A stretch of DNA of 39,435 nt. Origin: Prevotella sp. (GTDB taxonomy: Bacteria; Bacteroidota; Bacteroidia; Bacteroidales; Bacteroidaceae). The stretch spans positions 1 through 39,435 of the forward strand of contig JAFPZD010000086.1 of assembly GCA_017417465.1 (NCBI GenBank), read 5' to 3'. The position numbers and the translations under genes are program-made. Each line of letters opens with the position of its first letter. The first letter of the stretch is position 1. The notes beneath the pieces are model-generated. The model had not been told where the DNA came from and searched no databases. It saw only the letters and a program-made list of their open reading frames with translations. Below are positions 4,428 to 23,376 of this stretch, in pieces.

Positions 4428-4526
4428 TTATTTAACGCACACTTAACATTCGTACACGTTTTTTAGAGAGGCAAGGCCTGATTTGCCCCCTTTATTCACA
4501 AAGAATGTTAATTCGGACTATTGTTG

Positions 4527-4558: not shown

Positions 4559-4588
4559 TCCGAAATTACCTGATACAAGAAAAAAGAG

Positions 4589-6253: not shown

Positions 6254-6271
6254 ACCCGATATTTCAGTAAT

Positions 6272-6322
6272 ACAAGCCCCCTGGCCCATAGTCGCTAACA
6301 GACTGTCGGTCAGGGGCTTTTG
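6272..6322 (+). terminator. Intrinsic terminator after the regulator gene
   Basis: CAAGCCCCCTGG at 6273-6284 pairs with CAGGGGCTTTTG at 6311-6322, giving a GC-rich stem with one bulged C and a loop of about 26 nt, followed by TTTTGTTTT. It lies 19 bp after the regulator stop and separates it from operon 1. Confidence 0.7.
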
Positions 6323-6327
6323 TTTTA

Positions 6328-6395
6328 TATAACCCAAATATTCGTTATACATTCCTTAGTTTATGCGCCTACGTGGGGGAAATGCACTAACTTTG
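6328..6395 (+). promoter_or_regulatory. Promoter of operon 1 with shared upstream element
   Basis: The -7 box TAACTTTG is at 6388-6395. The expected -33 region (near 6362-6367) has no TTTG, which suggests dependence on an activator. The element CGTTATACATTCCTTA starts at 6343, exactly 45 bp before the -7 box. A nearly identical element lies 45 bp before the -7 box of operon 2 (19485). TATAAC (6328-6333) and GTTATA (6344-6349) also form an inverted repeat with a 10-bp spacer, a possible dimer site. Confidence 0.7.
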
Positions 6396-6421
6396 CCAAA
6401 AATTTTAAACCCCTAAAACGC

Positions 6422-8671
6422 ATGAAGTCACTACTCGCACTGATAGTTTTTGCAGCACTGCACCTGACAGCAGTGGCCCAAGAGACGAATCCCGTGGCGG
6501 ACCCTGCAGCCGTCGTCGACTGCGGCAATGCCCGCTTCACCGTGCTAACCCCCCAGATGGTACGCATCCAGTACAGCGACAAGAAGCTGTTCGAGGACCG
6601 CGCCACCTTCGCCATCGTCAACCGCCGTCTGCCCGTCCCTCAGTTTACCACCCGACAGGACAACGGCTACCTTTACATCAACACCGATGCCCTCTCACTT
6701 ATATATAAAATAGGTGGCCGCATTCAGAAAGACCAGCCCACCGACGGCGTACTGAGTATCAGCTTCAAGATGAACGGCAGGAACGTGCGTTGGTATCCTG
6801 GCAAGGACGACGCCCTCAACCTGAAAGGCACCACGCGCACCCTCGACGGCCAGATTGGCGACAACAAGCGCAGCGAGCTGGAGAACGGACTGCTGTCGCG
6901 CAGTGGCTGGAGCATCATCGACGAGTCGCCCAAGACAAAGCGTGGCGACGGCTCTACGACGTTCGCCTTCGACAAGACGGTCGACGGCATCGAGTGGGTC
7001 GCCAAGCCTGTCGACAAGGATGCCATCGACTGGTACTTCCTGGGCTACGGCCACGAATACAAGAAGGCTCTTGGCGACTTCATCAAGGTGGCCGGACGCA
7101 TGCCCATGCCGCCCTTCTACGTACTGGGCTACTGGTACAGCAAGTACCAGCGCTACACAAGCGATGAGTTTATGGAGATTGTCAACGACGTGAAGCGCAA
7201 CCAGATACCTATGGACGTGATGATTTTCGACATGGACTGGCACACGCAGGGCTGGACAGGCTGGACATGGGATCGGACGGCCATTCCCGATCCGGAAGGA
7301 CTGATCGATTGGATGCACAACAACGGACTGAAGGTCAGCCTCAACCTGCACCCCGCCGACGGCGTTGACGACGACGAGGACTTTTTCGAGGAGCTACGCG
7401 ACGACATGGGCATGGACAAGAGTGCCAAGGTGGTGCCCTGGAACCTCAGCGACCCGAAGTTCTACCATAACATGTTTGGCCGTATTATCCGTGCCCGCGA
7501 AAAGCAGGGCGTCGACTTCTGGTGGCTCGACTGGCAGCAGAACCTCACTAGCAAGTATGTCGACGGCCTCGGAGAGACCTTCTGGTGCAACCACGTGTTC
7601 TACAACGACATGCGTCTGAACCGTCCTGACCACCGCCCACTCATCTTCCACCGCTGGGGCGGACTGGGCAGCCACCGCTACCCCATCGGTTTCTCAGGCG
7701 ACTCGTTCACCACCTACGGTACGCTGGCCTGGCAGCCATACTTCACGGCAACAGCCTCGAACGTGTGCTTCGGCTACTGGGGCCACGACCTCGGCGGTCA
7801 CCAGCAGACAGGCGGCAACGATCCCGAAATCTACCTGCGCTGGATGCAGTATGGCGTCTTCACACCCATCTTCCGCACCCATGCCACCAACTGGCCCGGC
7901 ATCGAGCGCCGCATCTGGAAGTACCCCAACTTCCCCCTGCTGCTTGAGACCGTGCGCCTGCGCTACGCCCTCATGCCCTACATCTACACCGCCTGCCGTC
8001 AGGCCTACGACACGGGTGTCTCGCTCTGCCGTCCCCTCTATTACGAGTGGCCTGAGGAGAGCAACGCCTACCTCTTTGAGGACGAGTACATGTTCGGCGA
8101 CGACATCCTCGTGGCCCCCGTCGTGAAGGAGTCGGGCGCCGACGGCAAGAGCGTGCGCCGCGTCTGGCTGCCTCAGGGCCAGTGGTTCGACGTTTGCCGC
8201 AACCAGAGTATCGACGGTAACCGCGTCATCACCGATGCCTACTCGCTCAACGAGATTCCTTATTTCTATCGTGCCGGTGCCGTCATTGTAAACAATCCAC
8301 CCATGCTCAACCTGAACACCCGTCCCGACCGCCTCATCCTGAAGGTGGTGCCAGGAGCCGACGGCACGACCACCCTCTATGAGGACGAGGGCGACACGGA
8401 AGCCTACAAGAACGGCGTCTTCACAACGACCACCTTCACCCACCGCACCAACACACTCACCATAGAGCCACGCAAAGGCTCCTTCCCCGGCATGCCCACC
8501 GAGCGTGCCTACACCGCCGAGTTCCTTGCCACCGACCAGCCCTCAAAGATTATCGTCAACGGCGATGCGCTGTCGAACGGCTGCTGGGACTACGACGCCA
8601 CCAAACGCCTGCTCACGGTCTACGTGCCCAGCACACGCTGCGACCAGAAGACCACCATCGAGATTAGATGA
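6422..8671 (+). CDS. Secreted GH31 glycoside hydrolase (paralogue A)
   Basis: This is a 749-residue retaining alpha-glycosidase of family GH31, exported by a signal peptide (residues 1-19, ending AVAQ). An N-terminal beta-sandwich (about 25-210) precedes a TIM barrel (about 215-540) with PPFYVLGYWYSKYQRY, VMIFDMDWH and LNLHPADGV strands. The nucleophile is the Asp in FWWLDWQQ (about residue 370) and the acid/base is the Asp in IGFSGDS (about 427). A C-terminal beta domain follows, with LYEDEGDTEAYKNG typical of DUF5110. The nucleophile setting DWQQ differs from the WNDMNEP of ordinary alpha-glucosidases, so substrate specificity is open. The start is ATG at 6422; the longer open frame contains the promoter. 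First gene of operon 1. Its closest relative in the window is the GH31 at 23377. No C-terminal sorting tail is present. Confidence 0.93.
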   Translation: MKSLLALIVFAALHLTAVAQETNPVADPAAVVDCGNARFTVLTPQMVRIQYSDKKLFEDRATFAIVNRRLPVPQFTTRQDNGYLYINTDALSLIYKIGGRIQKDQPTDGVLSISFKMNGRNVRWYPGKDDALNLKGTTRTLDGQIGDNKRSELENGLLSRSGWSIIDESPKTKRGDGSTTFAFDKTVDGIEWVAKPVDKDAIDWYFLGYGHEYKKALGDFIKVAGRMPMPPFYVLGYWYSKYQRYTSDEFMEIVNDVKRNQIPMDVMIFDMDWHTQGWTGWTWDRTAIPDPEGLIDWMHNNGLKVSLNLHPADGVDDDEDFFEELRDDMGMDKSAKVVPWNLSDPKFYHNMFGRIIRAREKQGVDFWWLDWQQNLTSKYVDGLGETFWCNHVFYNDMRLNRPDHRPLIFHRWGGLGSHRYPIGFSGDSFTTYGTLAWQPYFTATASNVCFGYWGHDLGGHQQTGGNDPEIYLRWMQYGVFTPIFRTHATNWPGIERRIWKYPNFPLLLETVRLRYALMPYIYTACRQAYDTGVSLCRPLYYEWPEESNAYLFEDEYMFGDDILVAPVVKESGADGKSVRRVWLPQGQWFDVCRNQSIDGNRVITDAYSLNEIPYFYRAGAVIVNNPPMLNLNTRPDRLILKVVPGADGTTTLYEDEGDTEAYKNGVFTTTTFTHRTNTLTIEPRKGSFPGMPTERAYTAEFLATDQPSKIIVNGDALSNGCWDYDATKRLLTVYVPSTRCDQKTTIEIR

Positions 8672-8698
8672 AAGATGAAAGATGAAAGATGAAAGATT
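8667..8698. repeat. Heptamer repeat (GATGAAA)n between GH31 and SusE/F-like genes
   Basis: Three exact GATGAAA units and one GATTAAA unit begin at the GH31 stop codon. The reverse complement, TTTCATC, forms the long repeat inside the paralogous SusE/F-like gene at 25794-25870. Confidence 0.85.
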
Positions 8699-8741
8699 AA
8701 AATGAGAGAATGAGAAAATGAGAATTTTAAGCCACACGATT

Positions 8742-9476
8742 ATGAAACGCCTATTTATTTGTTTATCACTTGTCGCTCTTCACTTTTCACTGTTCATGAG
8801 CAGTGCCGCTGCACAGGACGCTCTGTGGCTGACTGGCAGCGCCGTACCTGGCGGTCAGCAGCAGCTGAAAGCCGTAGGCAACGGACAATACAAATATGCC
8901 GGCACGCTGAATGCAGGCGAGCTGTACGTTCAGACCACCCGTAAAGCAGGCGGCAGCACCCGTTACCTGAAAGCCTTGCTGCCCGACGCCACCGTTGCCA
9001 ACCACGGTCAGCAGTATGCCGAGAGCACCGATGGCAACAAGAGCGCCTGGCAAGTAGACGTTACCGACGACCACTATAAAGTCTGCATCGACACCAAGGC
9101 AAAGACCCTCCACGGTGAGATCTTCGTGCCCTGGGGCGAGCTCTTCATTGCCGGCGGTGCCACAGAGGTGGGCTGGAAGTCGGAAGGCAAGATGTTGCTC
9201 ATGGAGCAGGACATCGACAATCCCTACCTCTGGACATGGGAAGGCGAGCTGCGCGAACATCCCAACGTGGAAGAGCCCCGCAGCTTCAAGTTCCAGGGCC
9301 AAGACCGTTGGCATCCCAAAAGCCTGCACCCCTACGTTCAGGACGCCGACATTCTCACTGACCAGCAGCTGCACACCGGCGGTCCTGACACCAAGTGGAC
9401 CATCAGCACTGAGGGTCGCTACCACATCGCCATTGACCTGTTCAACGAGACGGTCAGTGCCAAGATTGTGAAATAG
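8742..9476 (+). CDS. SusE/SusF-like glycan-binding protein (paralogue A)
   Basis: The 244-residue secreted protein has a signal peptide (about residues 1-25, MKRLFICLSLVALHFSLF ... AAAQ). Two beta-sandwich repeats of SusE/SusF type follow. Repeat 1 (about 26-135) starts ALWLTGSAVPGGQQQL with AGELYVQTT. Repeat 2 (about 140-244) starts ELFIAGGATEVGWKSEGKM with LWTWEGEL, RSFKFQGQDRWHPKSLHPY and YHIAIDLFNETVSAKIV. Trp-rich faces such as these bind glucans in SusE and SusF. It lacks the lipobox Cys of those lipoproteins, so anchoring is unclear. I chose ATG at 8742, not the frame's earlier start at 8718, because it begins a proper signal peptide. It follows the GH31 in operon 1, repeated as a pair at 23377-26564. 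Confidence 0.8.
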   Translation: MKRLFICLSLVALHFSLFMSSAAAQDALWLTGSAVPGGQQQLKAVGNGQYKYAGTLNAGELYVQTTRKAGGSTRYLKALLPDATVANHGQQYAESTDGNKSAWQVDVTDDHYKVCIDTKAKTLHGEIFVPWGELFIAGGATEVGWKSEGKMLLMEQDIDNPYLWTWEGELREHPNVEEPRSFKFQGQDRWHPKSLHPYVQDADILTDQQLHTGGPDTKWTISTEGRYHIAIDLFNETVSAKIVK

Positions 9477-9539
9477 GACTCCATCCCCCACCCTACACTA
9501 TCAGCAAACCCATAATAACAATTTAAATACTTATACAAC

Positions 9540-12500
9540 ATGAAGAAATTTTTATTCTATTCGCTCGCATTAGCCTTTGGGCTGGTGAGCTCACAGCAGG
9601 CAATGGCCCTGGAGCAGAAAGACGGTGTCTACCTGATCAACAACGGCCAAGACCTTGAGGAATTCTCAAACATGGTGGCTAGCGGCAATGGCGGCATTAG
9701 CGCCGTGCTCACTGCCGACATCGACATGGACAAGATCGACCACCAGCCTATCGGCACCGTGTCGAGCCCCTTCCGTGGCACCTTTGACGGCCAGCAGCAC
9801 TACATCATGAAAATGATTATCGACCTGCCCGAGCAGGAGTATGTCGGACTGTTTGGCGTGCTCAACGATGGCGCCTACATCAAGAACGTTATCGTCGATT
9901 GGTCGTGCTTCGTCAGTGGTTCTGCCTTCGTAGGCGCCATCGCCGGTGGTACCAACGGCGGCGGCACGGTGACCTTCGAGAACTGCGGTAATGAGGGCAG
10001 CGTCGGTGCACAAAACCAGAACGCCGCCGGCATCTGCGGCGTCAGTATGGACAGTGCATGCGGCATCCGCCTCATCAACTGCTTCAACACCGGTGGTGTC
10101 AGCGGTGGCCGCGAGAGTGCAGCCCTCTGCGGATGGGTCGGCAACAGCGGCAGCGTCATCCAGAACTGCTACAACGCCGGCTTCGTCATCGGCATGGACG
10201 GTTCAAATTCGCTCTGGCGCAACGGCAACGGCAAGGGTACCAACAACTACGACAGCTACGGCAACCAGGGTACGCTCATCAGCGAGGATGAGTATGACCT
10301 GTCGAGTGGCACCGTCGCCTACCAGATCAACGGCAACCAGTCGAACAACGTGGTGTGGTTCCAGACCCTCGGCGAGGACCTGCATCCCGTGCCCTTCTCA
10401 TCCCACGGTGTTGTCTATGCCGTCGGCGACCTCTACTGCGACGGTTCGTCGAAGGGTGGCGAACTGACATTCTCGAATACCAACGAGTCGAACCGCGACC
10501 CGCACAAGTTCGTCAACGGTGTGTGCTCGAACTGCGGCGAAGTCGACAAGAGTTACATGTCGCCCGTTGGCGACACCTATATGATCGGCACAGCCGACGA
10601 ACTTAACTGGTTTGCAGCTATGGTGAACCACGGTGAGACAAAGATCAACGCCCAGCTCACTGGCGACATCGACTTCTCGCAGTACACGCTGGAAAACGTG
10701 ATGATTGGCGGCGATGCCTACACCCTCTCCGAGGAAGCTGGCGCCAACTCGTTCGAAGGCACCTTCGACGGTAACAACCACAAGATCACCATCAACTATG
10801 TCGGTTCTTACGATGGCATGGCCCTCTTCAAGGTCATCAACAACGCTACCATCCGCAACCTCGTCGTCGAGGGTACGATGGAGAGCACCGAGCGCTTCAT
10901 GGGCGGTGTAGCCTTTGTATGCCGCGGCACCTCTACCTTCGAGAACATCATCGTGAATGTCAACATGACGGGCAGCTACAGCGGCGACGCCACCGATGGC
11001 GGCATCTGCGCCGTAGCCCACGAGCACGCCACCTTCCGCAACTGCGCCTTCATCGGCTCCATGAATGCTCCTTCGTCAGAGGGCAGCGCTGCCATCATCG
11101 GCTACGCCCACGGCGAGAACGAGACCATCATTGAGAACTGCTACATCGCTGCATCGCTGCTCGACCTGACTGGCAACTCCACCGTCATCGCCCGTCACGT
11201 GCGCAACATTCTTAACTGTTACTACACTGACAACATCCTGCTCATGGACGAGAGCAACTCCACCGCCATCAGCGAGGGTGCCGTTGCTACTGGTGAGCTC
11301 TGCTACCTGATTGACCTCAATGGCGAAACCGATGCCTGGCGTCAGAACCTGGGCAGCGATAAATATCCTGTGCCCTTCCTCGACCACGCCATGGTGTATG
11401 CCTCAGGTTCACTGACCTGCGACGGCAAGATGAGCGGCAACATCAGCTACAGCAACAGCGCAGGTGCCACCACCCAAGACCCGCACCAGTACGACGCCAA
11501 CGGTGTCTGCACCGTTTGTGGCGGCCGTCTCATCACGAGTGTTGCCCAGTTCGTTGCCCTGGCTAACGACATCAATACGGGCGTCATCGACGGTGACGTC
11601 ATCATCGACCTCGACACCGACATCGACCTCAGCGGTCAGCAGTTCGAGGGCTTCGGCATCCGCCACAACGAGCCCAACGGCGAGACCGACGAGGAGGGCA
11701 ATCCCATCATGGTCGACGTCAAGCGTCCCTACAAGGGAACCTTCAACGGCCACGGCCACGTCATCTCTAACATGATTATCGACTCGCAGGAAGGCAACAA
11801 GGGTCTCTTCAGTCTCGTCAGCGGCGCCACTATCAAGAACGTCACCGTCGACGCCACTTGTGAGATCTACTCCGCTGGCTACTCAGCTGGTATCGTCGGC
11901 TGCACCACAGGTCGCGGCACCGTCACCATCGAGAACTGCGGCAACGAGGCCATGGTCAATGTCGGCGCTGAAGGCGTTAACGGAGCCGGCATCCTCGGCG
12001 TGAACGACCTCAGCGAGGCCTTCATCCGCATCATCAACTGCTACAATGCTGGCGACATCATCGGACAGCGTGAGTGTGGCACCATCAGCGGTTGGCTCGG
12101 CGACAACTTCGAAGTGAAGAACACCTACAACTGCGGCACCGTCAATCTTGAAGCTGTCGACGGTATCCGTACTTTCGCCCGCTACAACGGCGGCGATGGC
12201 GATCAACGCTTCGTCAACTGCTACGAGGTTGATGGCAGCCAGGTACAACCCGTGTCGACAAGCGACGTCGCTTCCGGCAAGCTGTGCTACGACCTGAACC
12301 AGGCCATTGGCAGCAACGTCTTCTATCAGACGCTCGGCAGCGACACGCATCCCGTGCTCATCCCCACTCACGGTGTTGTCACCTATGAGGGAGGCCAGTA
12401 CAGCAACGGTATCAACGAAATCGTAAATAGTAAATCGTCAAATGGTCAATGGTACGACCTGCAGGGCCGGAAGGTTGCCTCTCAGCCTTCTACGGCGGTA

Positions 12501-12584
12501 GCAAACTCTCAGTTCTCAGTTCTCAACTCTCAACTGAAGAAGGGTCTCTACATCACCGACGGAAAGAAAGTTTTAGTTAAGTAA
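9540..12584 (+). CDS. Secreted GLUG-repeat protein, three units, C-terminal sorting-like tail
   Basis: The 1014-residue protein has a signal peptide (about 1-23, ending AMAL) and three large units of about 310-330 residues. Each starts with an approximately 'VYLINNGQDLEEFSNMV'-like segment, then a GTFDGQxHxI strand and several GLUG-type beta-helix repeats (CGNEGSVGAQNQNAAGICGV, NCYNAG). Units 1 and 2 end with a H(x3-5)NGVCxxCG motif (residues about 322-333 and 650-660). Unit 3 runs to about 960. The tail (about 971-1014) reads GQWYDLQGRKVAS, a heptamer-repeat linker, and KKGLYITDGKKVLVK, like the short Prevotella C-terminal sorting tails. The protein is presumably a surface or secreted adhesin/binding protein; function is unknown. 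It is the third gene of operon 1. The two other GLUG proteins in the window are clear paralogues. Confidence 0.85.
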   Translation: MKKFLFYSLALAFGLVSSQQAMALEQKDGVYLINNGQDLEEFSNMVASGNGGISAVLTADIDMDKIDHQPIGTVSSPFRGTFDGQQHYIMKMIIDLPEQEYVGLFGVLNDGAYIKNVIVDWSCFVSGSAFVGAIAGGTNGGGTVTFENCGNEGSVGAQNQNAAGICGVSMDSACGIRLINCFNTGGVSGGRESAALCGWVGNSGSVIQNCYNAGFVIGMDGSNSLWRNGNGKGTNNYDSYGNQGTLISEDEYDLSSGTVAYQINGNQSNNVVWFQTLGEDLHPVPFSSHGVVYAVGDLYCDGSSKGGELTFSNTNESNRDPHKFVNGVCSNCGEVDKSYMSPVGDTYMIGTADELNWFAAMVNHGETKINAQLTGDIDFSQYTLENVMIGGDAYTLSEEAGANSFEGTFDGNNHKITINYVGSYDGMALFKVINNATIRNLVVEGTMESTERFMGGVAFVCRGTSTFENIIVNVNMTGSYSGDATDGGICAVAHEHATFRNCAFIGSMNAPSSEGSAAIIGYAHGENETIIENCYIAASLLDLTGNSTVIARHVRNILNCYYTDNILLMDESNSTAISEGAVATGELCYLIDLNGETDAWRQNLGSDKYPVPFLDHAMVYASGSLTCDGKMSGNISYSNSAGATTQDPHQYDANGVCTVCGGRLITSVAQFVALANDINTGVIDGDVIIDLDTDIDLSGQQFEGFGIRHNEPNGETDEEGNPIMVDVKRPYKGTFNGHGHVISNMIIDSQEGNKGLFSLVSGATIKNVTVDATCEIYSAGYSAGIVGCTTGRGTVTIENCGNEAMVNVGAEGVNGAGILGVNDLSEAFIRIINCYNAGDIIGQRECGTISGWLGDNFEVKNTYNCGTVNLEAVDGIRTFARYNGGDGDQRFVNCYEVDGSQVQPVSTSDVASGKLCYDLNQAIGSNVFYQTLGSDTHPVLIPTHGVVTYEGGQYSNGINEIVNSKSSNGQWYDLQGRKVASQPSTAVANSQFSVLNSQLKKGLYITDGKKVLVK
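12421..12535. repeat. Intergenic-type repeats inside the tail of the GLUG protein gene
   Basis: 12421-12450 carries TAAATCG/TCAAATGG units like those in three other gene tails here. 12504-12535 carries about four AACTCTC/AGTTCTC heptamers that encode VANSQFSVLNSQL in frame. The block separates the DLQGR part of the tail from GLYITDGKKV. Confidence 0.75.
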
Positions 12585-12597
12585 TAGTAGTTTTTTT

Positions 12598-14907
12598 ATG
12601 ACCAACAGAGTCAGTATGTTGTTTTATGGCCTGGTCGTCGCCGTGATGGCGACGGCTCAGGCCAGTTTTGTAAGTAAAGACTGTGTGGCGGTGTTCTATC
12701 CAAAGGACTACGATGCTACTGCACACCAGCCGTCGCCCATCTTTGTCAACGAGCCTACGGCCATCTACCCGTTAGGCAGCGACTGGGAGCTGCGCCCCGT
12801 CTTTTCGGAGCGCGACGGCAAGAGCATCGCCACCATCAGTATACCCAAAGGCGTCGACCTCTACGGCACCGGCGAGGTGACGGGACCACTGCGCCGCAAC
12901 GGGCGCACCATCAGCCTCTGGAACATCGACACACCGGCCTACGGCGTCGATGGGGGCACACACCTCTACCAAAGCCATCCCTGGGTCATGGGACTACGAC
13001 CCGACGGTACAGCTTTCGGTATCATTGCCGACAACACATGGCGACAGACCATCACCACAGGCGAGGACGTGCGCTTCGAGAGCGACGGCCCCGCCTTCCG
13101 CGTCGTCATCATCGAGCGCGACAGCCCGCGCCAACTCATGCAGGCGCTCGTCGACCTCACTGGCCACATGGAGATGCCACCGCTGTGGGCCTTAGGCTAC
13201 CAGCAGTGCCGCTTCAGCTACCAGCCCGACACGCGCGTAAAGGAGATTGCCGACACGCTGCGCATGCTGCGCATCCCCTCCGACGTCATCTGGATGGACA
13301 TCGACTACATGCACCACTACCGCATCTTCACCTTCCGTCCCGACGAGTTCCCCGACCCGAAAGGGCTGAACGACTATCTGCACGACCGCAACTTCAAGGC
13401 TGTCTACATGATCGACCCCGGCGTGTCGGCAACCGAGGGCTACTTCGTCAACGACCAAGGCACGGCGGGCGACTACTGGGTGAAGGATGCCAGTGGCAAG
13501 CCCTACGTCGGCAACGTCTGGCCCGGCCCTTGCCACTTCCCTGACTTCACCCGTGAGGATGTGCGCCTCTGGTGGGCCACTCTCTACAAGGACTTCATGG
13601 CAACAGGCATCGACGGCGTGTGGAACGACATGAACGAGCCCTCCGTCTTCGGAGGCCCCGGTGGCACCATGCCCGTTGACAATATTCATGGAACTGGGAA
13701 CGGAGAACGGAGAACTGAGAGGTATGATTATCAAACTGAGAACGGAGAACTGAGAACTGAGAATGATTACACGCAAGCCGACAACTCCGCCGGCAAATCT
13801 AATCATAATTCTCAATCCCCAATTCTCAATTCTCAATTCTCAACTCTCAATTCTCAATTCTCAACTCTTAATTCTCAATTCTCCCACCTCCGCTACCACA
13901 ACGTCTATGGATTAAATATGGTACGCGCGAGCCGCGAAGGCCTCCTGTTGGCCAATCCCCATAAGCGGCCGTTCATCCTCTCACGCTCCAACTTCCTCGG
14001 CGGTCATCGTTATGCCGCCACGTGGACGGGCGACAACCTGTCGTCGGTAGAGCAGATGAAGCTCAGCGTACCCATGACGTTGACGCTCGGCCTCTCAGGC
14101 CAGCCCTTCAACGGCCCCGACATCGGCGGCTTCTGCGAGAGTGCCAACGGCGACCTCGTGGCACAATGGACAGCCATGGGCGTCTTCTTCCCCTTCGTGC
14201 GCAACCACAGCATCAAGGGCAGCGCCAACCAGGAGCCATGGGCTTTCACACCCGAGGTACTCAACGCCTGCCGCACAGCCATCGAGCGTCGTTACCTCCT
14301 CATGCCTTACATCTACACCCTCTTCCGAGAGGCTAGCCTGACTGGCATGCCCGTCATGCGGCCACTCTTCATGGCCGATGCCAAGGATCTCTCGCTACGC
14401 AGCGAGGACCAGGCCTTCCTGCTCGGCGGCGACCTCATGGTCACCCCCCGCTGGGCCGAGAACGTCCCCCAGCCCGATGGCGGCTCCTGGCAGCCCCTCA
14501 ACCTGTCCAGTCTGTCGTCGTATCACGACGACGGCGACGACCACTACCAGGCCGAGCTGCGCCAGCGTCCCGGTAGCGTCATCCCCTTGGCCAACCTCGC
14601 CCAGAGCACTTCCGAGATGCGCACCGACTCGCTCACACTCCTCGTCTGTCTTGATGCCGACGGCAAAGCTTGCGGCCAGCTTTACGAGGACGATGGCGAC
14701 AACTTCTCCTATCGTCAGGGCAACTATCTCCTCAGCAACATCAAGGCCTCGCTGGCGAAGCGCCTGCTCACCGTGACCGTCACCCCTGCCGAGGGGCAGT
14801 CGTCCCCCGCCCCCCGTGTGCTCCGCATCGGCTACGTCAGTCGTGGCCGCGTGCAGTACTCACCTTGGCAGTCGGGCACTGTTGCCACTATGAAGGTTAA
14901 GCCGTAA
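12598..14907 (+). CDS. Secreted GH31 alpha-glucosidase-type enzyme with a repeat-derived insertion
   Basis: The 769-residue enzyme belongs to the ordinary alpha-glucosidase branch of GH31. After a signal peptide (about 1-22) and an N-terminal sandwich, the TIM barrel carries VIWMDIDYMHHYRIFTF, the nucleophile Asp in GVWNDMNEPSVFGG (about residue 343), and the acid/base Asp in ATWTGDNLSS (about 479). SANGDLVAQWTAMGVFFPFV and the DUF5110-like LYEDDGDNFSYRQG follow. Between MPVDNIHG and LRYHNVYGLNM it has about 66 residues (365-430) encoded by heptamer repeats, where relatives have a short loop. The frame stays open, so the enzyme may be intact. It lies 13 bp after the GLUG gene in operon 1. Expected activity is exo-cleavage of terminal alpha-glucose, outside the cell or in the periplasm. 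Confidence 0.92.
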   Translation: MTNRVSMLFYGLVVAVMATAQASFVSKDCVAVFYPKDYDATAHQPSPIFVNEPTAIYPLGSDWELRPVFSERDGKSIATISIPKGVDLYGTGEVTGPLRRNGRTISLWNIDTPAYGVDGGTHLYQSHPWVMGLRPDGTAFGIIADNTWRQTITTGEDVRFESDGPAFRVVIIERDSPRQLMQALVDLTGHMEMPPLWALGYQQCRFSYQPDTRVKEIADTLRMLRIPSDVIWMDIDYMHHYRIFTFRPDEFPDPKGLNDYLHDRNFKAVYMIDPGVSATEGYFVNDQGTAGDYWVKDASGKPYVGNVWPGPCHFPDFTREDVRLWWATLYKDFMATGIDGVWNDMNEPSVFGGPGGTMPVDNIHGTGNGERRTERYDYQTENGELRTENDYTQADNSAGKSNHNSQSPILNSQFSTLNSQFSTLNSQFSHLRYHNVYGLNMVRASREGLLLANPHKRPFILSRSNFLGGHRYAATWTGDNLSSVEQMKLSVPMTLTLGLSGQPFNGPDIGGFCESANGDLVAQWTAMGVFFPFVRNHSIKGSANQEPWAFTPEVLNACRTAIERRYLLMPYIYTLFREASLTGMPVMRPLFMADAKDLSLRSEDQAFLLGGDLMVTPRWAENVPQPDGGSWQPLNLSSLSSYHDDGDDHYQAELRQRPGSVIPLANLAQSTSEMRTDSLTLLVCLDADGKACGQLYEDDGDNFSYRQGNYLLSNIKASLAKRLLTVTVTPAEGQSSPAPRVLRIGYVSRGRVQYSPWQSGTVATMKVKP
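13691..13887. repeat. Heptamer-repeat block inside the GH31 catalytic domain
   Basis: The left part (13691-13767) has GAACGGA/GAACTGA heptamers. The right part (13807-13883) has eleven AATTCTC/AACTCTC heptamers, 77 bp exactly. The two parts are near reverse complements, with GAGAATGATTA facing TAATCATAATTCTC, so the transcript could fold into a stem. The block is translated without stops. Confidence 0.85.
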
Positions 14908-14997
14908 TCAAGCACATACTCACGTCCCGTTTAAAACCGTGTAAAACCGTGGCCGTAATCAAGCGCATGCTCACATCCCGTGTAAAACCGTGGCTTT
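14900..14997. repeat. Two tandem copies of a ~45-bp intergenic repeat
   Basis: CGTAATCAAGCACATACTCA with CGTCCCGT...AAAACCGTG is followed by CGTAATCAAGCGCATGCTCA with CATCCCGTGTAAAACCGTGG. The first copy includes the stop codon of the GH31 gene. The same CGTAATCA(n)CTCATGTCCCGT theme surrounds the start codon of the GH18-like gene at 26583. No promoter box is seen before the next gene, so read-through is likely. Confidence 0.7.
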
Positions 14998-15047
14998 AAT
15001 TAAAACATAACTAACAACATTCACTAACCAAAAAATCATTAGCGCTT

Positions 15048-18000
15048 ATGAAAAGAAAACTAAACAACCTGCTCGCGCTGGCCTTCTGTTGCCTGACGAG
15101 CACCAGTGCGCTGGCCATCGAACCCGTTGACGGGGTCTACATGATTGGCACAGCACAGGATTGGGCTGAGTTCTGTACCCTGCACAACGAGGGTACCGAC
15201 CAGAAGCTTAACGCCGAGCTCACCGCCGACATCACCGTCGAAGGCAACGTCATGGTGGGCATCAACGGCGGCGGCAAGCCCTACCGCGGCGTATTCGATG
15301 GCAAGGGCCACAAGCTCGTCATCGCCTACGACCTCAACGAGGAGCGCGTCGCGCCCTTCCGCCGCATCAACGGCGCCACCATCCGTAACCTCATCGTCGA
15401 GGGTACCATCAACACCAGCTCAAAGCTCGCTTCCGGTCTGGTCGGCGGACTGTGGCAGAGCGGAGCGCTCATCCAGAACTGCGTCAGCTACGTCGTCATC
15501 ACCGACACCAACGAGGGTGACGCCACCCACGGCGGCATCTGCGGCAGCTTCGAGGATGTCAACGGCGCCAACACCATCGAGAACTGCGCGTTCCTTGGCA
15601 CTATCAATGCGCCTAATCGCGAAGGCTGCGGTGGTATTGTCGGCTGGACCAACAACAACGCCAACAACAACGTCATCCGCAACTGCCTTGTCAAGGCTTA
15701 CGGCTTTGTCGTGAAGAGGCTTACAAACAACGACATCATCTGTCGCAACAACGGCAATGTGGAGAACTGCTACTTCATCGGTGCCACCGATGGCATCAAG
15801 AACGACCACGGTGCCACCCATGTCACCGACCAGCAGGCCCAGAGCGGCGAGCTCTGCTTCCTGCTCAACGGCAGCCAGAGCGAAAACGTCAATTGGTTCC
15901 AGAAGATTGGCACTGATGACATGCCCATGCCATTCGGCACCGACGTTGTCTATGCCAATGGCTCACTGGACTGCGGCGGTCACCCGAAGGACGACGTCAC
16001 CTTCAGCAACACCGCTGCTGAGCCCACACGCGACGACCACAACTTTAGCGAGTGGGGCTTCTGCAGCGTCTGCAACGAGATGCAGCCCGACTTCCTTGAG
16101 GCTGATGCCGAGGGCTACTTCAACATCGGCACCAAACAGCAGTACAACTGGCTGGCTGTCTACATCAACAATGGCCATGGCAACACCAACTTCCGCCTGA
16201 CACAGGATCTTGACCTCAGCGACTACACCTTCCTGCCTCTGGGCACCGATGGCAGCAAGTTCTGCGGCACCTTCGACGGTCAGCAGCACCGCATCCTCAA
16301 CATGACGATCGACGGCACCAAGAAGGAGCAGGGCTTCTTTAGCGTCTGCGCCGGTGGTACCGTTATCAAGAACGTCATCATCGACAGCAGTTGTAAGATG
16401 GAAGGCACGGGCGGTGCCAACGTAGCCGCTCTCATTGGCTGCATCAACGGCAACAACAACGGCGAGGTGATCACCATCCAGAACGTCGGCAACGAGATGT
16501 CGTTCGACGTAACGACTACCAACAACGCCGGCTTCGTAGCACGCGACTGGAGCGACTACCTGAAGGTCGACATCCAGAACTGCTACAACACTGGCGACAT
16601 CATGGGTGGTGTAGAGAACGGTGCCTTCACCGGGTGGACACCGCGCGTTACCCTGACCAATTGCTGGAACACCGGACGCATTGAGAAGACCGGCGGCTGG
16701 GACGGCAGCAAGTCCCTGGCTCGTGGCAACCAGCCTAAGTTCATCAACTCCTATGATCTGAACAGCGAGAACACCGACAATGCCGGTGCTCCTGAGGGCT
16801 ACGACGCCGCGTGGATTGCCAGCGGACAACTGTGCTACGTCATGAACGGCAAGCAGAGCGCTGACGTCACTTGGTTCCAGAAGCTGGGCGACGATGCCGA
16901 CGCTCAGCCCTATCCCTTCGGCGACGCCATCGTCTATGCCAATGGCGCACTTCAGTGCGACGGCATCACTCCGAAGGAAGGCTCTGAGCTGACCTTCTCG
17001 AACACCGAGGGCAACACCATCGACGACCACGACTTTGGCGAGTGGGGCTTCTGCACCGTCTGCAACGAGATGCAGCCCGACTTCATAACACCCGCCGAGG
17101 ACGGCTACTTCGAGATTGCTGACAACAAGCAGCTCAACTGGTTCGCCATGTATGTCAACACCACTGACAACAAGGCTGCCAACGCCCGCCTCACCGCCGA
17201 CATCAACTTCAGCGAGCAGCAGGTGATGATTGGTAATGGCGACAACGACGATGCTTATAAGGGCACCTTCGATGGTCAGGGTCATAAGGTCACCCTCGGC
17301 TATACCGTCAACCAGAAGAACGTGGCACTCTTCCGCTACCTGAACAAGGCTACCATCAAGAACCTCATCACCGACGGTACCATCCAGAACGAGAATAACT
17401 CCTGCTCGGGCGGTATCTTCGCCGGTTCACGCGGCGCCACCGTCATCGAGAACTGCGTCAGCTATGTCAACTTCGTTCGTGAGTCAGCCGGCGACGCCAC
17501 CATCGGCGGTATCGGTGCTTACATGCACGACAATGGCAAGCTGCGCAACGTGGCCTTCTATGGCACCATCGACACGCCTGCTGCCGACGGCAACGGCGGT
17601 CTGCTGGGTTACGCCAACGGCGGCGGAAACATACGTGTAGAGAACAGCGTCATCAATGCCGTGAAATTTGCACAGAAGGACGGCGGCAACTCGGTTGCCA
17701 TCGCCCGCAACACGGGTAACGTCGAGAACACCTACGTTGTCAACGCCGACGGCATCCGCCAAAACGAGCAGATCGACGCCACTGCCGAGCAGCTGGCCAG
17801 CGGCGAGCTCGCCTATCTGCTTAACGGCAGCGTCGATGGCGGCACCAACTGGTTCCAGGTCATCGGCACCGATCCCGCTCCCCTGCCCTTCGCCAAGGAA
17901 GGCGCAACCGTCTATGCTAACGGCACATTCCTCTGCGACGGCGTCACCCCGAAGGAAGGCACCGAGAAGACCTACTCCAACGAGGAGGGCTCGACCGTCG

Positions 18001-19109
18001 ACGAGCACTCATGGAACGAATGGGGCTTCTGCGAGGTCTGCGACGAGATGCAGCCTGACTACATGGCGGCCAACGACGAAGGCATCTTCGAGCTTGGCAC
18101 CGACAAGCAGCTCAACTGGTTTGCACACTACGCCACGAAGGTCGACGCCTCGGCTAACGCCGTCCTCACCGCCGACATCGACATGACTGAAGTGAACGGA
18201 TTCCCCGGCATCGGCAATCCTGAGCATCCCTACACCGGCACCTTCGATGGTCAGCGCCACATCATCAGCAGCCTCACCATCGACAATCAGGACAATGAGA
18301 ATCCCACCGGCTTCTTCAACGAGGCTACGGCTGGGGCTGTCATTAAGAACTTCACCATCGACAACACCTGCTACATCGTTGGTAACCACTACGTAGGCGC
18401 ATTCGTAGGCCACGTCGCCGGCGAAGGCGAGGTAATCCTCGAGCAACTCGGCAACGAGGCAGACGTCGTAGCTTGGAACCAGAATGCTGGCGGTATCGTC
18501 GGTTGCAACACCAGCGGCGAACTGAAGCTGAAGCTCACGAACTGCTACAACGCGGGCTTCATCAGCAGCACAAATGAGAGCGGCGGTCTTGGCGGATGGC
18601 TCGGTAATAATGCCGAGACAGTCAACTGCTACAACATGGGTGATGTGCAAGGCGACAACAGCGAGTCGTTCGCACGCGGTAACAACATCCAGGTTACCAA
18701 CTGCTTCGACCCAGCCACCGACTGGCCCACACTGCATGCAAGTCCCATTGAGGACTTCACCAACGGCACCGTCTACGCAGCTCTGAGCGCTGCCGCTCCT
18801 GGCGTTTGGTTCCTCAGCGCTGAGGTCGACGGTCACCCCGTGCTCTACGACAGCGGATTCCCCGTCATCGACATCGTTGGCGACGTGAACAACGACGGCC
18901 AGGTGGGTATCGGTGACATCGTGGCTATCACCAACATTATGGCCGGCATCTTCAACGAGGATATGGACGACGAGGCTATCGAGGCCTTCAAGGCTCGTGC
19001 TGACGTGAACAAAGACGGTCAGGTTGGTATCGGCGACATCGTAGCCATCACCAACATCATGGCTGGCATCGAAAAGTCGGACGACAACAACACGAACGAC
19101 CCCGAATAA
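15048..19109 (+). CDS. Secreted GLUG-repeat protein, four units, dockerin-like C-terminus
   Basis: The 1353-residue protein has a signal peptide (1-23, ending SALA) and four large GLUG beta-helix units. Units 1-3 end in a strongly conserved linker: DxHxFxEWGFCxVCxEMQPDF at about residues 330-349, 662-679 and 988-1005, a period of about 330. Each unit opens with a 'GYFEIADNKQLNWFAMYV'-like segment and a GTFDGQGHKV strand. The C-terminus (about 1278-1340) has two dockerin-like Ca-binding repeats, GDVNNDGQVGIGD and ADVNKDGQVGIGD, each followed by IVAITNIMAG. An acidic tail ends the protein; no sorting-type tail is present. The dockerin-like end suggests docking to a cohesin-like partner or a stabilising cap. 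No cohesin is visible here. Last gene of operon 1, followed by a strong hairpin. Confidence 0.87.
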   Translation: MKRKLNNLLALAFCCLTSTSALAIEPVDGVYMIGTAQDWAEFCTLHNEGTDQKLNAELTADITVEGNVMVGINGGGKPYRGVFDGKGHKLVIAYDLNEERVAPFRRINGATIRNLIVEGTINTSSKLASGLVGGLWQSGALIQNCVSYVVITDTNEGDATHGGICGSFEDVNGANTIENCAFLGTINAPNREGCGGIVGWTNNNANNNVIRNCLVKAYGFVVKRLTNNDIICRNNGNVENCYFIGATDGIKNDHGATHVTDQQAQSGELCFLLNGSQSENVNWFQKIGTDDMPMPFGTDVVYANGSLDCGGHPKDDVTFSNTAAEPTRDDHNFSEWGFCSVCNEMQPDFLEADAEGYFNIGTKQQYNWLAVYINNGHGNTNFRLTQDLDLSDYTFLPLGTDGSKFCGTFDGQQHRILNMTIDGTKKEQGFFSVCAGGTVIKNVIIDSSCKMEGTGGANVAALIGCINGNNNGEVITIQNVGNEMSFDVTTTNNAGFVARDWSDYLKVDIQNCYNTGDIMGGVENGAFTGWTPRVTLTNCWNTGRIEKTGGWDGSKSLARGNQPKFINSYDLNSENTDNAGAPEGYDAAWIASGQLCYVMNGKQSADVTWFQKLGDDADAQPYPFGDAIVYANGALQCDGITPKEGSELTFSNTEGNTIDDHDFGEWGFCTVCNEMQPDFITPAEDGYFEIADNKQLNWFAMYVNTTDNKAANARLTADINFSEQQVMIGNGDNDDAYKGTFDGQGHKVTLGYTVNQKNVALFRYLNKATIKNLITDGTIQNENNSCSGGIFAGSRGATVIENCVSYVNFVRESAGDATIGGIGAYMHDNGKLRNVAFYGTIDTPAADGNGGLLGYANGGGNIRVENSVINAVKFAQKDGGNSVAIARNTGNVENTYVVNADGIRQNEQIDATAEQLASGELAYLLNGSVDGGTNWFQVIGTDPAPLPFAKEGATVYANGTFLCDGVTPKEGTEKTYSNEEGSTVDEHSWNEWGFCEVCDEMQPDYMAANDEGIFELGTDKQLNWFAHYATKVDASANAVLTADIDMTEVNGFPGIGNPEHPYTGTFDGQRHIISSLTIDNQDNENPTGFFNEATAGAVIKNFTIDNTCYIVGNHYVGAFVGHVAGEGEVILEQLGNEADVVAWNQNAGGIVGCNTSGELKLKLTNCYNAGFISSTNESGGLGGWLGNNAETVNCYNMGDVQGDNSESFARGNNIQVTNCFDPATDWPTLHASPIEDFTNGTVYAALSAAAPGVWFLSAEVDGHPVLYDSGFPVIDIVGDVNNDGQVGIGDIVAITNIMAGIFNEDMDDEAIEAFKARADVNKDGQVGIGDIVAITNIMAGIEKSDDNNTNDPE

Positions 19110-19130
19110 AGTAGTTATTATCCTGAACAT

Positions 19131-19180
19131 CCTGCACATCCCGCACCTGGTTTTAGGTGCAGGATGTGCAGGTTGTTTTG
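19131..19180 (+). terminator. Terminator hairpin of operon 1
   Basis: CCTGCACATCCCGCACCT (19131-19148) pairs with AGGTGCAGGATGTGCAGG (19155-19172) with one mismatch, loop GGTTTT, and is followed by TTGTTTTG. It lies 21 bp after the dockerin-like gene. The core ATCCCGCACCT and loop resemble the hairpin at 39306-39369. Confidence 0.75.
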
Positions 19181-19297
19181 TAGAGGGAGTTTGACCCAAA
19201 TTGGTATATCTGTAAGAGAGCTCCCTTCAACGTAAGTATGCCATACTTACGAATGGTGTCTTTGCCATTTGTGACAGATGTGACAGACCCCTGGGTT

Positions 19298-19407
19298 GCT
19301 CCGAGAGGACTCCCACTCTGCTCCGAGAGGACTCCGAGTTTGCTCCGAGAAGTCTCCCGCTCTGCTTCGAGAGGACTCACACAGTGTTCCGAGAGGCCTT
19401 GTAGAGT
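19298..19407. repeat. Five 22-bp tandem repeats
   Basis: Units start at 19298, 19320, 19342, 19364 and 19386. The consensus is GCTCCGAGAGGACTCccactct; the first 14 bases are conserved and the last 8 vary. There is no spacer between units, so it is a minisatellite, not a CRISPR. Confidence 0.85.
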
Positions 19408-19484
19408 GGTTATACATCCCGCACCACCACTCCAACATAACCCACTGATTATCAGCGACGAGTCAAATTAAGACTCTCAATACA

Positions 19485-19537
19485 CGTTATACAATCCTTA
19501 TTATATAACGCGCGTGAGCAAAAAACCACTACCTTTG
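19485..19537 (+). promoter_or_regulatory. Promoter of operon 2 with shared upstream element
   Basis: The -7 box TACCTTTG is at 19530-19537. The -33 position lacks TTTG. CGTTATACAATCCTTA starts at 19485, 45 bp before the -7 box, and differs by one base from the element before operon 1 at 6343. CGTTATA (19485-19491) and TATAACG (19504-19510) form an inverted repeat with a 12-bp spacer. Confidence 0.7.
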
Positions 19538-19595: not shown

Positions 19596-22500
19596 ATGAA
19601 AAGACAACTCAAAGTTTTCGTACTGACCGTCCTCGCAGCGGGGATGTCAGGAAGTGTGTGGGCGCTCGACCAAGTCAATGGCGTCTACCAAATTGGGACG
19701 GCACAAGACCTTGCTGATTTCGCAAACTATGTGAATGCGGAACGTAGGACAGGCATTAATGCCGAGCTGACAGCCAACATTGACTTCACGTCTAACTCAG
19801 AAATGATTGGTATCGAGGGGAAGCCGTACAATGGAACCTTTGATGGCAAAGGTTTCACTGTGACTGTTGCTTACAATACCTCTGCCAATGAGACGGCGCT
19901 CTTCCGCCGTGCGAATGGAGCCACAATCAAAAATCTGAAAGTGACTGGAACCATCACAACAACTGGCCAGTTTGCTGCTGGCATCGTGTCAGGCATCTGG
20001 CAGACTACTACTATTGAGAACTGCGTTACGTCAGTCGCAATTTCTGACAACGGCAGCGGCGATGGCACTCATGGCGGCATCGTGGCACGCATCAGCGACA
20101 AGGGTGGAGCCGATGCCATCATCATCCGCAACTGTGCGTTCCTCGGTTCACTTAACGCACCGAACCGTACCGGTAGCGGCGGTATTCTTGGCTGGCCAGA
20201 CAATGCAGGGGAAAAACAGGTTATCATAGAAAACTGTCTGATGGGAGGTACTCTAAACTTAGCTACTGGCAGCGACAACGACATCATCGTGCGCAACTCA
20301 GCCTCAGTCACAAACTGCTATTATCTCAACCAGCAAAGTATTAACAATTCTAAGAATGCTACCTTGGCAACGGCTGAGCAGCTGGCGAGTGGTGAGCTCT
20401 GCTTCCTGCTTAACGGCAGCCAGAGCGAGACGCCCGCGTGGTTCCAGACCATCGGCACCGACGAGATGCCTTCACCACTCGGCACGGATACTGTCTATGC
20501 CATTGGTGCTCTGAATTGCAACGGCACTCCTAAGGGGGAAGTAAGCTACAGCAACACCTACAGCGAGGCCGTTCGTGATGCTCACGACTTCAACGAGTGG
20601 GGCTTCTGCACCGTTTGTGATGCTATGCAGCCCGACTTCCTCACCGTGGAAGACGGCTATTATCTCATCGGCACCAAGCAGCAGTACAACTGGTTCATGG
20701 TTTACGCCAACAGCGAAAACAGTGCTGCAAATGCCAAGCTGACACAGGATCTCGACCTGAGCGACTACAATTTCACCTCCATCGGTAACGACAGCCATCG
20801 CTATCACGGCACTTTCGACGGTCAGGGACACCGTGTGAAGAACATGTCTATTGTTGGCACAACTAAGGAGCTGGGCTTCTTCAGTGTTTGCTCGAACGCC
20901 ACCATTAAGAACCTTATCCTCGATGCCAGCTGTAACATCAACAGTGGCAACTGCACTGCTGCCCTGGTTGGTTGTTGCAACGGCAGTGGCGATCTGGTCA
21001 TTGAAAATGTCGGTGTAGAGTGCAACGTTACTGGTACCGGTGCCAACGCTGCTGCCTTCGTTGGTTGCAACTATGGTGGTATTGCCATCAAGATCAAGAA
21101 CTGCTACAACACGGGTAACATTACAGCTGAAAAAGAGAGCGCCGTTTTCAGCGGCTGGTTCGGCAACAACGGCAATGCAAAAGTGGAGAACTGCTGGTCA
21201 ACAGGTAAGGTGACCGGTCAGGATGGACAAAACAGCTTTGGCCGTGGAATCGGTGCCCAACAGTTTGTTAACGCGTATGACCTGAACAGCGAAAACAATC
21301 CTATCGACGCCACCAAGCTGACTGATTACGACAGTAGCTGGTTGGCATCGGGCAAGCTTGCCTACATCATGAATGGCAACAAGAGCACCGACGTCGTTTG
21401 GTATCAAACCATCGGCACCGACGCTCACCCCATGCTATTCGGCACTACCGACATCGTCTATGCGAACGGTACTATATTGTGCGACCACATCACTCCCGCT
21501 GAAGGGTCCGAGATTGTCTTCTCCAATACGGATCAGAGTATCATTTCTGATCACCAATTTGAGGAAGGCTTCTGCAAAATCTGTAAAGTATATGATCCAC
21601 AGTATATGACAGCAGTTAGTGGATACTACCAAGTTAGCACACCTATTCAGCTCCTCTGGACAGCTGCCGTGTCACAGGACAATTCGGCTATCAAGGTAAA
21701 ACTGATGAATAACATCGATATGGACGGTGTCGCCTTTGACGGTTTTGGTTCGAATCTTTCTGATGACAGCCGCTTCACGGGCGAAATTGACGGACAGCGC
21801 CACATTATCTCTAACCTGAAGATGAATGCCGACCGCCAAGGCGTAGGTCTGGTGAACACCGCTACCGTTGGTGCCAAGATTAAGAACCTTACCATGGCCA
21901 GCACGTGCGAGTTCAAGGGCAGCAGTGCCGTGGCAGCCTTCATCGGTGCCGTGCGCGGCTCTGAGGGTGAGCTCTACATCGAGAACTGCGGTAACGAAGG
22001 TGCAGTGACAGCTTCGGGTGCCAACGGTGCCGGTTTCGTGGGTTGTAAGTATGACGACAATGTGATTCCTTGCCTTACCAATTGCTACAATGTTGGTGAA
22101 ATACGCAGTGGATACGACGGTGGTAGCTTCTCGGGCTGGATGCCTAAGGCAAAGATGGTGAACTGCTACAGCATCGCAGGTTATCCTTCAGCTGAGGATA
22201 CTTACGGTTTCCAAGAAGGAAACCAGTTCAGCCGTGGTTGGAGCATCGAATTAACCAACTGCTATGACTTTGGTACAGGTGACTGGGGCCAGAACAACGG
22301 AAGTTGGGGTGATAATTGTTTCGTTGGTGATCGTAAAATTACTGAAGTGAACGAGACAACTATGGGTGTGGTCTTTGCAGGTCTCTACGACGCTGAGGGC
22401 GGCAACGTCTGGCGTATGGAATATGAGGGCTGGGCACACCCCGTGCTCTACGATCCTGCCACCACCGTGCTGAGCGAGAACGTGCCCGCACGCTTCGAGG

Positions 22501-23120: not shown

Positions 23121-23324
23121 ATGAACGTTATGACAAAGAAAGCATATTTCGCACCTATGACGCAGATTGTCGAAGTGCAAGCACTACAGTTGATGGCTGG
23201 TTCGCCCAAGATTATTGTTGATGAAGAAACCATCAACTATGACGAAACGCCTGGCAATGCCTCGGGTGGCCTTGGTCGTCAGCGCTACGACATCTGGGAA
23301 GAGGAGGAGGACGACGAGCAATAA
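23121..23324 (+). CDS. Small acidic Bacteroidales protein (K-x-Y-x-x-P start)
   Basis: The 67-residue protein begins MNVMTKKAYFAPMTQIVEVQ, with a second ATG at codon 4 that gives MTKKAYFAPMTQIVEVQALQ. It continues LMAGSPKIIVDEETINYDE and GGLGRQRYDIWEEEEDDEQ. The pattern KxYxxPxxxVVxVQxxQLxxGS is that of a widespread group of tiny Bacteroidales proteins of unknown function, often placed beside secreted or cell-surface genes. It has no signal peptide or membrane helix and a very acidic end. It lies 24 bp after the GLUG gene and 52 bp before the GH31 gene. Whether it is a peptide precursor, regulator or chaperone-like partner cannot be told from sequence. Confidence 0.7.
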   Translation: MNVMTKKAYFAPMTQIVEVQALQLMAGSPKIIVDEETINYDETPGNASGGLGRQRYDIWEEEEDDEQ

Positions 23325-23376
23325 CCTGCCGCCGCGATTTCCCGCAAACAGAGTATTTTTAACTAAACAAAAAAGA

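What the first reader, a model, noticed from the sequence alone, without database searches (positions are those of the whole stretch)
6328..19537. Two long operons share one upstream promoter element at identical spacing
CGTTATACATTCCTTA (6343) and CGTTATACAATCCTTA (19485) match at 15 of 16 positions, and both start exactly 45 bp before a TAnnTTTG box (6388 and 19530). Neither promoter has the usual TTTG at -33. Both have an inverted repeat of GTTATA type at the element, though arranged differently. Together the two promoters would drive genes from 6422 to 36438. This looks like an activator site defining one regulon of nine enzymes and binding proteins or more. The adjacent TPR/LuxR-type membrane regulator (4589-6253) is the natural candidate.
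Basis: partly seen in the sequence, partly recalled or inferred. Interest (0 to 1): 0.8.

Follow-up and report, generated by a model that had tools for sequence, protein, structure and literature searches.

The report
Tandem SusR-type switches before enzyme operons
Two long sugar-degradation operons of a Prevotella-like bacterium each carry the same paired landing sites, exactly 77 bases apart and at the same distance from the promoter, most likely for the SusR-type sugar sensor encoded next door; similar pairs recur in many relatives, with a third conserved mark between the two sites.

Summary
In detail: CGTTATACAwTCCTTA at 6343 and 19485, each 45 bp before TAnnTTTG. Three things were missed. 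(1) Each element is the proximal half of a direct repeat: GTWATACA occurs exactly four times in the window, at 6267/6344 and 19409/19486, two pairs each 77 bp apart. (2) A palindrome, YTGANNNTCAR, lies between the halves. (3) The adjacent regulator (4589-6253) passes NCBI's curated SusR model. Direct repeats 67 or 77 bp apart are what Ravcheev et al. 2013 predicted for SusR-like regulators. In relatives a distal half lies at the matching place (mostly 75-77 bp) in 29 of 29 regulator-adjacent promoters and 30 of 32 others. Among 398 same-genus genomes, sites of >=30 bits occur only with this regulator: 40 of 40 where it is >=53% identical, 0 of 13 below 50%, 0 of 339 without it. Others precede SusC/D, GH76 and GH125 genes, an alpha-mannan-type locus; the own genome has two more members on contig C67. 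A letter-blind scan of more distant SusR-family loci peaks at exactly 67 and 77 bp. Verdict: a new SusR-type regulon with sharper operator anatomy; binding, activation and substrate are inferred.

The parts
4589..6253 (+). SusR-family regulator: TPR sensor part, probable transmembrane helix, coiled coil, C-terminal LuxR/NarL-like HTH
   Evidence: NCBIfam NF058541 SusR_regulator 523.9 bits, cut-off 480; Pfam DUF6377 and TPR; GerE 18.2 bits, below its cut-off of 23.5; AlphaFold2 model
6267..6274 (+). distal SusR half-site GTAATACA, promoter 1, at -121 from TAnnTTTG
   Evidence: one of only four GTWATACA in the window, 77 bp before the proximal site
6303..6313 (.). central palindrome CTGTCGGTCAG (7 of 8 specified bases), inside a terminator-like hairpin after the regulator gene
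6326..6333 (-). left inverted arm TATATAAC of the proximal site (optional feature)
   Evidence: such an arm is present in 16 of 29 regulator-adjacent promoters
6343..6358 (+). proximal SusR half-site CGTTATACATTCCTTA, 45 bp before the box
   Evidence: 50.7 bits with a model built from other species
6388..6395 (+). TAACTTTG, -7 promoter element
6422..8671 (+). GH31 glycosidase, first gene of operon 1
   Evidence: Pfam
8718..9476 (+). conserved protein of unknown function, operon 1
   Evidence: no Pfam; conserved order in relatives
9540..12584 (+). large conserved protein of unknown function, operon 1
   Evidence: no Pfam; conserved order
12598..14907 (+). GH31 glycosidase, operon 1
15048..19109 (+). 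large protein with a C-terminal dockerin-like domain, operon 1
19409..19416 (+). distal SusR half-site GTTATACA, promoter 2, at -121
   Evidence: 77 bp before the proximal site
19445..19455 (.). central palindrome CTGATTATCAG, promoter 2
19485..19500 (+). proximal SusR half-site CGTTATACAATCCTTA, 45 bp before the box
   Evidence: 18.7 bits in the own-genome scan
19530..19537 (+). TACCTTTG, -7 promoter element
19596..23096 (+). large protein of unknown function, first gene of operon 2
   Evidence: no Pfam
23215..25785 (+). GH31 glycosidase (start codon uncertain), operon 2
25782..26564 (+). SusE/SusF-like outer-membrane protein
26583..27866 (+). protein of unknown function, operon 2
   Evidence: no Pfam
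27879..31058 (+). C10 peptidase with Spi-type inhibitor domain
31064..34738 (+). GH38 alpha-mannosidase with F5/8 type C domain
34762..36438 (+). GDSL-type esterase with dockerin-like domain, last gene of operon 2

Best explanation
Both promoters carry SusR-type operators read by the neighbouring SusR-family regulator. The regulator senses an oligosaccharide in the periplasm through its TPR part. Two DNA-binding ends then occupy direct-repeat half-sites (GTTATACAwTC) 77 bp apart; the proximal one abuts RNA polymerase at a promoter that has the TAnnTTTG box but no -33 element, and transcription of the enzyme operon is switched on. SHOWN by computation: the repeats, their spacing to each other and to the box, their conservation, their co-occurrence with this regulator, and the regulator's family. 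INFERRED: binding, activation, ligand sensing, operon-length transcripts, and an alpha-mannan-type substrate.
For: GTWATACA occurs four times in the window, all four forming the two 77-bp pairs at -121/-44; 0 such pairs in 300 shuffles. Regulator passes NF058541. Published in-silico SusR-like motifs are direct repeats 67 or 77 bp apart (PMC3878776). A distal half lies at the matching place in 29 of 29 and 30 of 32 non-redundant promoters, control windows at most 4; these promoters were collected without regard to the distal half (model R1 ends at -66). Sites >=30 bits: 40 of 40 genomes with regulator >=53% identical, 1 of 6 at 50-52%, 0 of 13 below 50%, 0 of 339 without it. More distant SusR-family loci, scanned without regard to letters: offsets 77 and 67 have 9 promoters each among 232 boxes; the mean over the 84 offsets other than 77, with 67 included, is 0.40.
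Against: No binding or expression data. Promoter 2 scores weakly with the cross-species model (18.7 bits) and ranks third in the own genome, behind a C43 site (21.2 bits) that matches only the box side. That scan missed the two C67 promoters. Exact 77 bp holds for 17 of 29 and 15 of 32 promoters; 12 and 12 have 75-76 bp, three of the second set 78 or more, two none; one C67 promoter has 78. Co-occurrence counts are not phylogenetically independent, and 28 of the 40 genomes hold a promoter, or a copy of one, that trained the model. The 16-mer alone is not specific: 10 other one-mismatch copies in 40 genomes have no box at 45 bp.
Confidence: 0.85

Rival explanations
1. Another transcription factor co-inherited with the locus (hybrid two-component or AraC type) binds the sites; the SusR-family protein is only a neighbour.
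For: Binding was not tested. In B. thetaiotaomicron alpha-mannan loci are assigned to hybrid two-component systems (PMC3878776 passage).
Against: Published HTCS repeats lie about 21 bp apart on average, not 77. The site tracks the regulator's identity. More distant SusR-family loci show the same 77/67 geometry with other letters.
Confidence: 0.08
2. The element is a general promoter-proximal A/T-rich or housekeeping feature of these bacteria, not an operon-specific operator.
For: The model's box-side half matches many promoters (109 matches at E<=10 in the own genome), and 126 of 398 genomes have some match at E<=5e-4, many of them box-side only.
Against: Matches >=30 bits fall only in regulator-positive genomes; 16-mer copies elsewhere lack the box; 336 control boxes give 77-bp repeats only twice, both at promoters of this same regulon.
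Confidence: 0.04
3. The conserved stretch acts as an RNA or cruciform hairpin (terminator or attenuator between operons).
For: Some promoters have near-perfect dyads, e.g. L146 and L147, followed by T-rich DNA; arm pairing in the second promoter set is slightly above shuffles (z 2.0).
Against: In the regulator-adjacent set pairing equals shuffles (z 0.3); the left arm is missing in about half; the core keeps a fixed distance to the box.
Confidence: 0.03

Closest known systems
SusR / SusR-like regulons of Bacteroides (Ravcheev et al. 2013, PMC3878776; its section on SusR-like regulons and search passages read)
   Same: Same regulator family by curated model; direct-repeat half-sites at 77 bp; 67 and 77 both recovered here in more distant loci.
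   Different: Half-site letters differ from the CCACTTTTT/CACTACTTTTTT-like ones I found at more distant loci (the paper's own logos were not seen); targets are GH31/GH38/GH76/GH125 rather than starch or dextran genes; fixed 45-bp distance to TAnnTTTG and a conserved central palindrome, where the paper speaks of a non-conserved spacer.
Dextran-responsive SusR-like system BT3091 (PMC6874557; passages read)
   Same: SusR-like regulator activating a polysaccharide-utilization promoter; that paper calls the mechanism of SusR undefined.
   Different: Other glycan and organism; no operator dissection in the passages seen.
Hybrid two-component (HTCS) regulons of alpha-mannan loci (PMC3878776 passages)
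   Same: Direct repeats before mannan-utilization genes.
   Different: Repeat distance about 21 bp on average; other regulator architecture.

Membership tests
SusR-family regulator | score above the curated NCBIfam cut-off (NF058541) | tested here: met
   523.9 bits against 480; 519.2 in the genome scan
SusR-family regulator | membrane-spanning, sensor outside, HTH at the C-terminus | tested here: inconclusive
   model: TPR helices, one long helix 313-438, helical C-terminal bundle; GerE 18.2 bits below cut-off; RcsB and NarL-type folds near the top of the search but E>=0.4 on a low-confidence model; topology not measured
SusR-type operator | direct-repeat half-sites 67 or 77 bp apart | tested here: met
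   77 bp at both window promoters; peak at 77 across relatives, with 75-76 in part of them
SusR-type regulon | regulator binds and activates the operons on its glycan | not testable with these tools
   needs binding and expression experiments
SusR-type regulon | SusC/SusD pair among the targets | tested here: met
   not in the window, but C67 has SusC-SusD-SusE-GH43 behind the same kind of operator; Pfam-checked likewise in relative L223
HTCS regulon | direct repeats about 21 bp apart, hybrid histidine kinase | tested here: not met
   77-bp repeats; no kinase domain in 4589-6253
ECF sigma-factor control | promoter without the primary-sigma -7 box (criterion recalled) | tested here: not met
   TAnnTTTG at both promoters

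The most novel reading that the evidence does not exclude
SusR-family operators are three-part: distal half-site, central palindrome YTGATNATCAR about 35 bp downstream of it, and proximal half-site about 45 bp before TAnnTTTG. Operators of the 67- and 77-bp classes differ by one DNA turn removed only between the palindrome and the proximal half (palindrome at about -75 or -85), so a membrane-bound SusR assembly, perhaps with a second factor on the palindrome, would loop or bend a rigid module onto RNA polymerase.
Probability: 0.35. Interest if true: 0.68.

Novelty: new member of a known kind. Interest (0 to 1): 0.52.

Why it matters
SusR is the founding regulator of glycan-utilization loci (recalled), yet a 2019 paper still calls its mechanism undefined (PMC6874557) and its sites were known to me only as a 2013 in-silico prediction. 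The clade here has 40 sampled genomes with a strong half-site and a nearly invariant ruler (distal about -121, palindrome about -85, proximal -44, box 0), so how a membrane-bound sensor reads two distant sites becomes testable with short DNA fragments and a reporter. It also puts a mannan-type locus under a SusR-family regulator, where B. thetaiotaomicron is assigned hybrid two-component systems.

Tried and rejected
Bare 16-mer as regulon marker: rejected; 10 other one-mismatch copies in 40 genomes, none with a box at 45 bp. Own-genome candidates C85:36877 (15.1 bits) and C103:6110 (13.2 bits), the two other matches that reach across the whole core: neither has TTATACA; the gene after the first looked tryptophanase-like to me, untested. 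Hairpin or cruciform reading of the dyad: no clear covariation (z 0.3 and 2.0). Palindrome as a mere terminator tip of the regulator gene: in regulator-adjacent promoters it often sits in a hairpin, but it is as frequent at sites without the regulator upstream (24 of 29 against 26 of 32). Central-palindrome-plus-box pattern as a genome-wide marker: mixed; by my own sum of the table 43 hits against 2 controls in 24 same-genus genomes and 57 against 11 in 16 more distant ones, but several hits belong to another recurring promoter. Fold search of the whole regulator: the 50 listed matches are TPR-type or other helical-repeat proteins. Search for DUF6377 in papers: none held.

Rows dropped or chosen: L157 (no site at the nearest box) stayed in the profile but was left out of A1; duplicates L137, L138, L141, L142, L149, L163 were left out; L136 and L150 showed no box within 700 bp of the regulator, and the model later found sites further downstream in their genomes. 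Where several boxes followed a regulator I took the one that carried the element. L116 duplicates L110. Near-identical promoters were merged before the counts (30 to 29; 33 to 32). One of the 32 'other' promoters, L112, is in fact regulator-adjacent and identical to L160. The table was cut by the tool at weak matches; its rows of 30 bits and more were read by hand and typed into. Some of the identities used there cover only part of the protein.
Full report
OBSERVATION. The 16-mer on its own is not a regulon marker: the 10 other one-mismatch copies in 40 genomes have no TAnnTTTG at 45 bp. Element plus box is another matter. In 398 same-genus genomes GTTATACAWTCNTTA followed after 28-31 bp by TANNTTTG gave 7 matches in 6 genomes, all with a gap of exactly 29, and 0 with the reversed pattern.

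GTWATACA occurs four times in the window on both strands together: 6267, 6344, 19409 and 19486. These are two direct repeats, each 77 bp apart, at -121 and -44 from the box. Shuffled windows hold 0.97 copies on average, and in 300 shuffles none formed a 77-bp pair or had the box at +44. Between the halves lies a palindrome at -85, CTGTCGGTCAG in promoter 1 and CTGATTATCAG in promoter 2.

THE REGULATOR. 4589-6253 matches DUF6377 and TPR models and passes NCBI's curated SusR model NF058541, 523.9 bits against 480. The AlphaFold2 model (mean pLDDT 85) shows TPR helices, a long helix 313-438 and a C-terminal helical bundle. GerE (LuxR type) is matched below its cut-off, and RcsB/NarL-type folds are near the top of the list for the C-terminal part, but with E of 0.4 or worse on a low-confidence model. 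So SusR family is tested and met; LuxR-like is likely, not proven.

CONSERVATION. Eight orthologous regulators came from named Prevotella or Prevotellaceae records (four titles point to the rumen, three of them by the RUG prefix as I recall it). The element lies 45 bp before the box in nearly all of them (exceptions are listed under Tried and rejected). In the 29 promoters, where one (L157) lacks it and where I chose the box that carried the element when there were several, TTATACA is about as conserved as the box itself. A sequence model from 29 promoters of other species ranks window promoter 1 first in the own genome with 50.7 bits. Promoter 2 gets 18.7 bits and rank three, a weak score; the two further matches that reach across the whole core lack TTATACA. 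The scan missed two further members that the palindrome pattern found.

CO-OCCURRENCE. Of 398 same-genus genomes 59 hold the regulator at E<=1e-100. Model matches of 30 bits or more occur in 41 genomes, all among the 59: 40 of 40 where the regulator is at least 53% identical, 1 of 6 at 50-52%, 0 of 13 below 50%, 0 of 339 without it. By my matching of loci to genomes, 12 of the 40, the own genome included, gave no promoter to the model; the others did, or hold a copy of one that did. Genomes are not independent, so the hypergeometric figure is only a guide.

REGULON. Among sites away from the regulator, those whose neighbours I checked by Pfam precede a SusC-SusD-SusE-GH43 run and a GH125 gene in L223 (a GH38 gene lies further on in that run), a GH76 gene in L234, and a two-gene run with GH76 in L225; genes of the same sizes as the SusC-SusD-SusE-GH43 run follow several other sites. 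Further sites precede a C10 peptidase gene in L117 and the second GH31 gene in L098. In the own genome contig C67 has the operator before a GH76 gene (sites -121/-44, box 2834) and before SusC-SusD-SusE-GH43 (sites -122/-44, box 6759). With GH38 in the window this points to alpha-mannan or high-mannose glycans (inference from families; GH31 and C10 do not settle it). The assembly is 90.8% complete with 5.5% contamination, and C162/C163 hold further susC ends, so C67 may come from a sister strain.

OPERATOR ANATOMY. In non-redundant promoters the distal half is found in 29 of 29 regulator-adjacent promoters (start -121 in 17, -120 in 7, -119 in 5) and 30 of 32 others (-121 in 15, -120 in 7, -119 in 5, -122 in 2, -124 in 1), control windows at most 4; the palindrome at -86 to -84 in 24 of 29 and 26 of 32, controls at most 4; the left inverted arm in 16 of 29 and 15 of 32; TTTG at the -33 place in 1 of 29 and 3 of 32. 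One of the 32, L112, is really regulator-adjacent and equals L160. These promoters were collected by element, box and a model that reaches only to -66, so distal half and palindrome are independent of their selection.

GENERAL RULE. In loci of more distant SusR-family genes (25-44% identical where measured; 24 of the 30 loci were not measured) I looked for any 12-mer near the proximal place that recurs upstream, regardless of letters. Of 232 boxes, offsets 77 and 67 had nine promoters each; the mean over the 84 offsets other than 77, with 67 included, was 0.40. In 336 control boxes the commonest offset was 111 with three; 77 had two, both promoters of this regulon. The own genome's other SusR paralog (C212) has GTATCCACTTTC/GTTTCCACTTTA, 77 bp apart: same ruler, other letters; of the six other distant promoters in that call three show a 77-bp repeat (L133, L134, L283) and three show none (L061, L135, L288). 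These are the two distances predicted in 2013 for Bacteroides. In the 67-bp promoters the palindrome peaks at -75 (z 3.6), in the 77-bp ones at -86 (z 4.1), so it keeps its distance to the distal half; with nine promoters per class, and no clear palindrome in four of the 77-bp ones, this is suggestive, not settled.

KNOWN OR NEW. The kind is known: SusR-type regulon with tandem sites. New as far as I searched are the clade, its half-site, the mannan-type targets, the fixed distance to the -7 box and the central palindrome. Of the 2013 paper I read the section on SusR-like regulons and search passages; its supplementary logos could not be opened. Searches listed papers of which I opened three in passages (PMC3878776, PMC11633381, PMC6874557); none of these passages reports an experimentally mapped SusR site. 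The other listed papers were not opened and most subscription papers are not held, so this is not proof of absence.

Noticed in passing
window 4400-4588: The regulator's own upstream region has no GTWATACA site, so the regulator is probably not under its own control.
   Followed up: partly
L267, L265, L258, L254, L268 (hits): A different recurring promoter, TGATNNTCAR followed by TTACAAAA-like DNA, appears in several same-genus genomes at the same distance to TAnnTTTG; its gene was not identified.
   Followed up: no
window 9540-12584, 15048-19109, 19596-23096: Three very large proteins almost without Pfam matches; related genes recur in the loci of relatives (L233).
   Followed up: no
window 15048-19109 and 34762-36438; L249:622-2499: Dockerin-type domains in a Prevotella-like genome.
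   Followed up: no
window 27879-31058: C10 (streptopain-type) peptidase with its own inhibitor domain inside a glycan-degradation operon; in L117 the homologous gene has the operator directly in front of it.
   Followed up: partly
L146 and L147: Near-perfect 30-40 bp palindromes around the proximal site, with GACCTTTG/GAACTTTG in place of TAnnTTTG at the same distance.
   Followed up: partly
L250, L251 (own contigs C162, C163): Two short contigs begin with the same susC end, 78-79% identical to the query SusC, which suggests mixed strains in the assembly.
   Followed up: no
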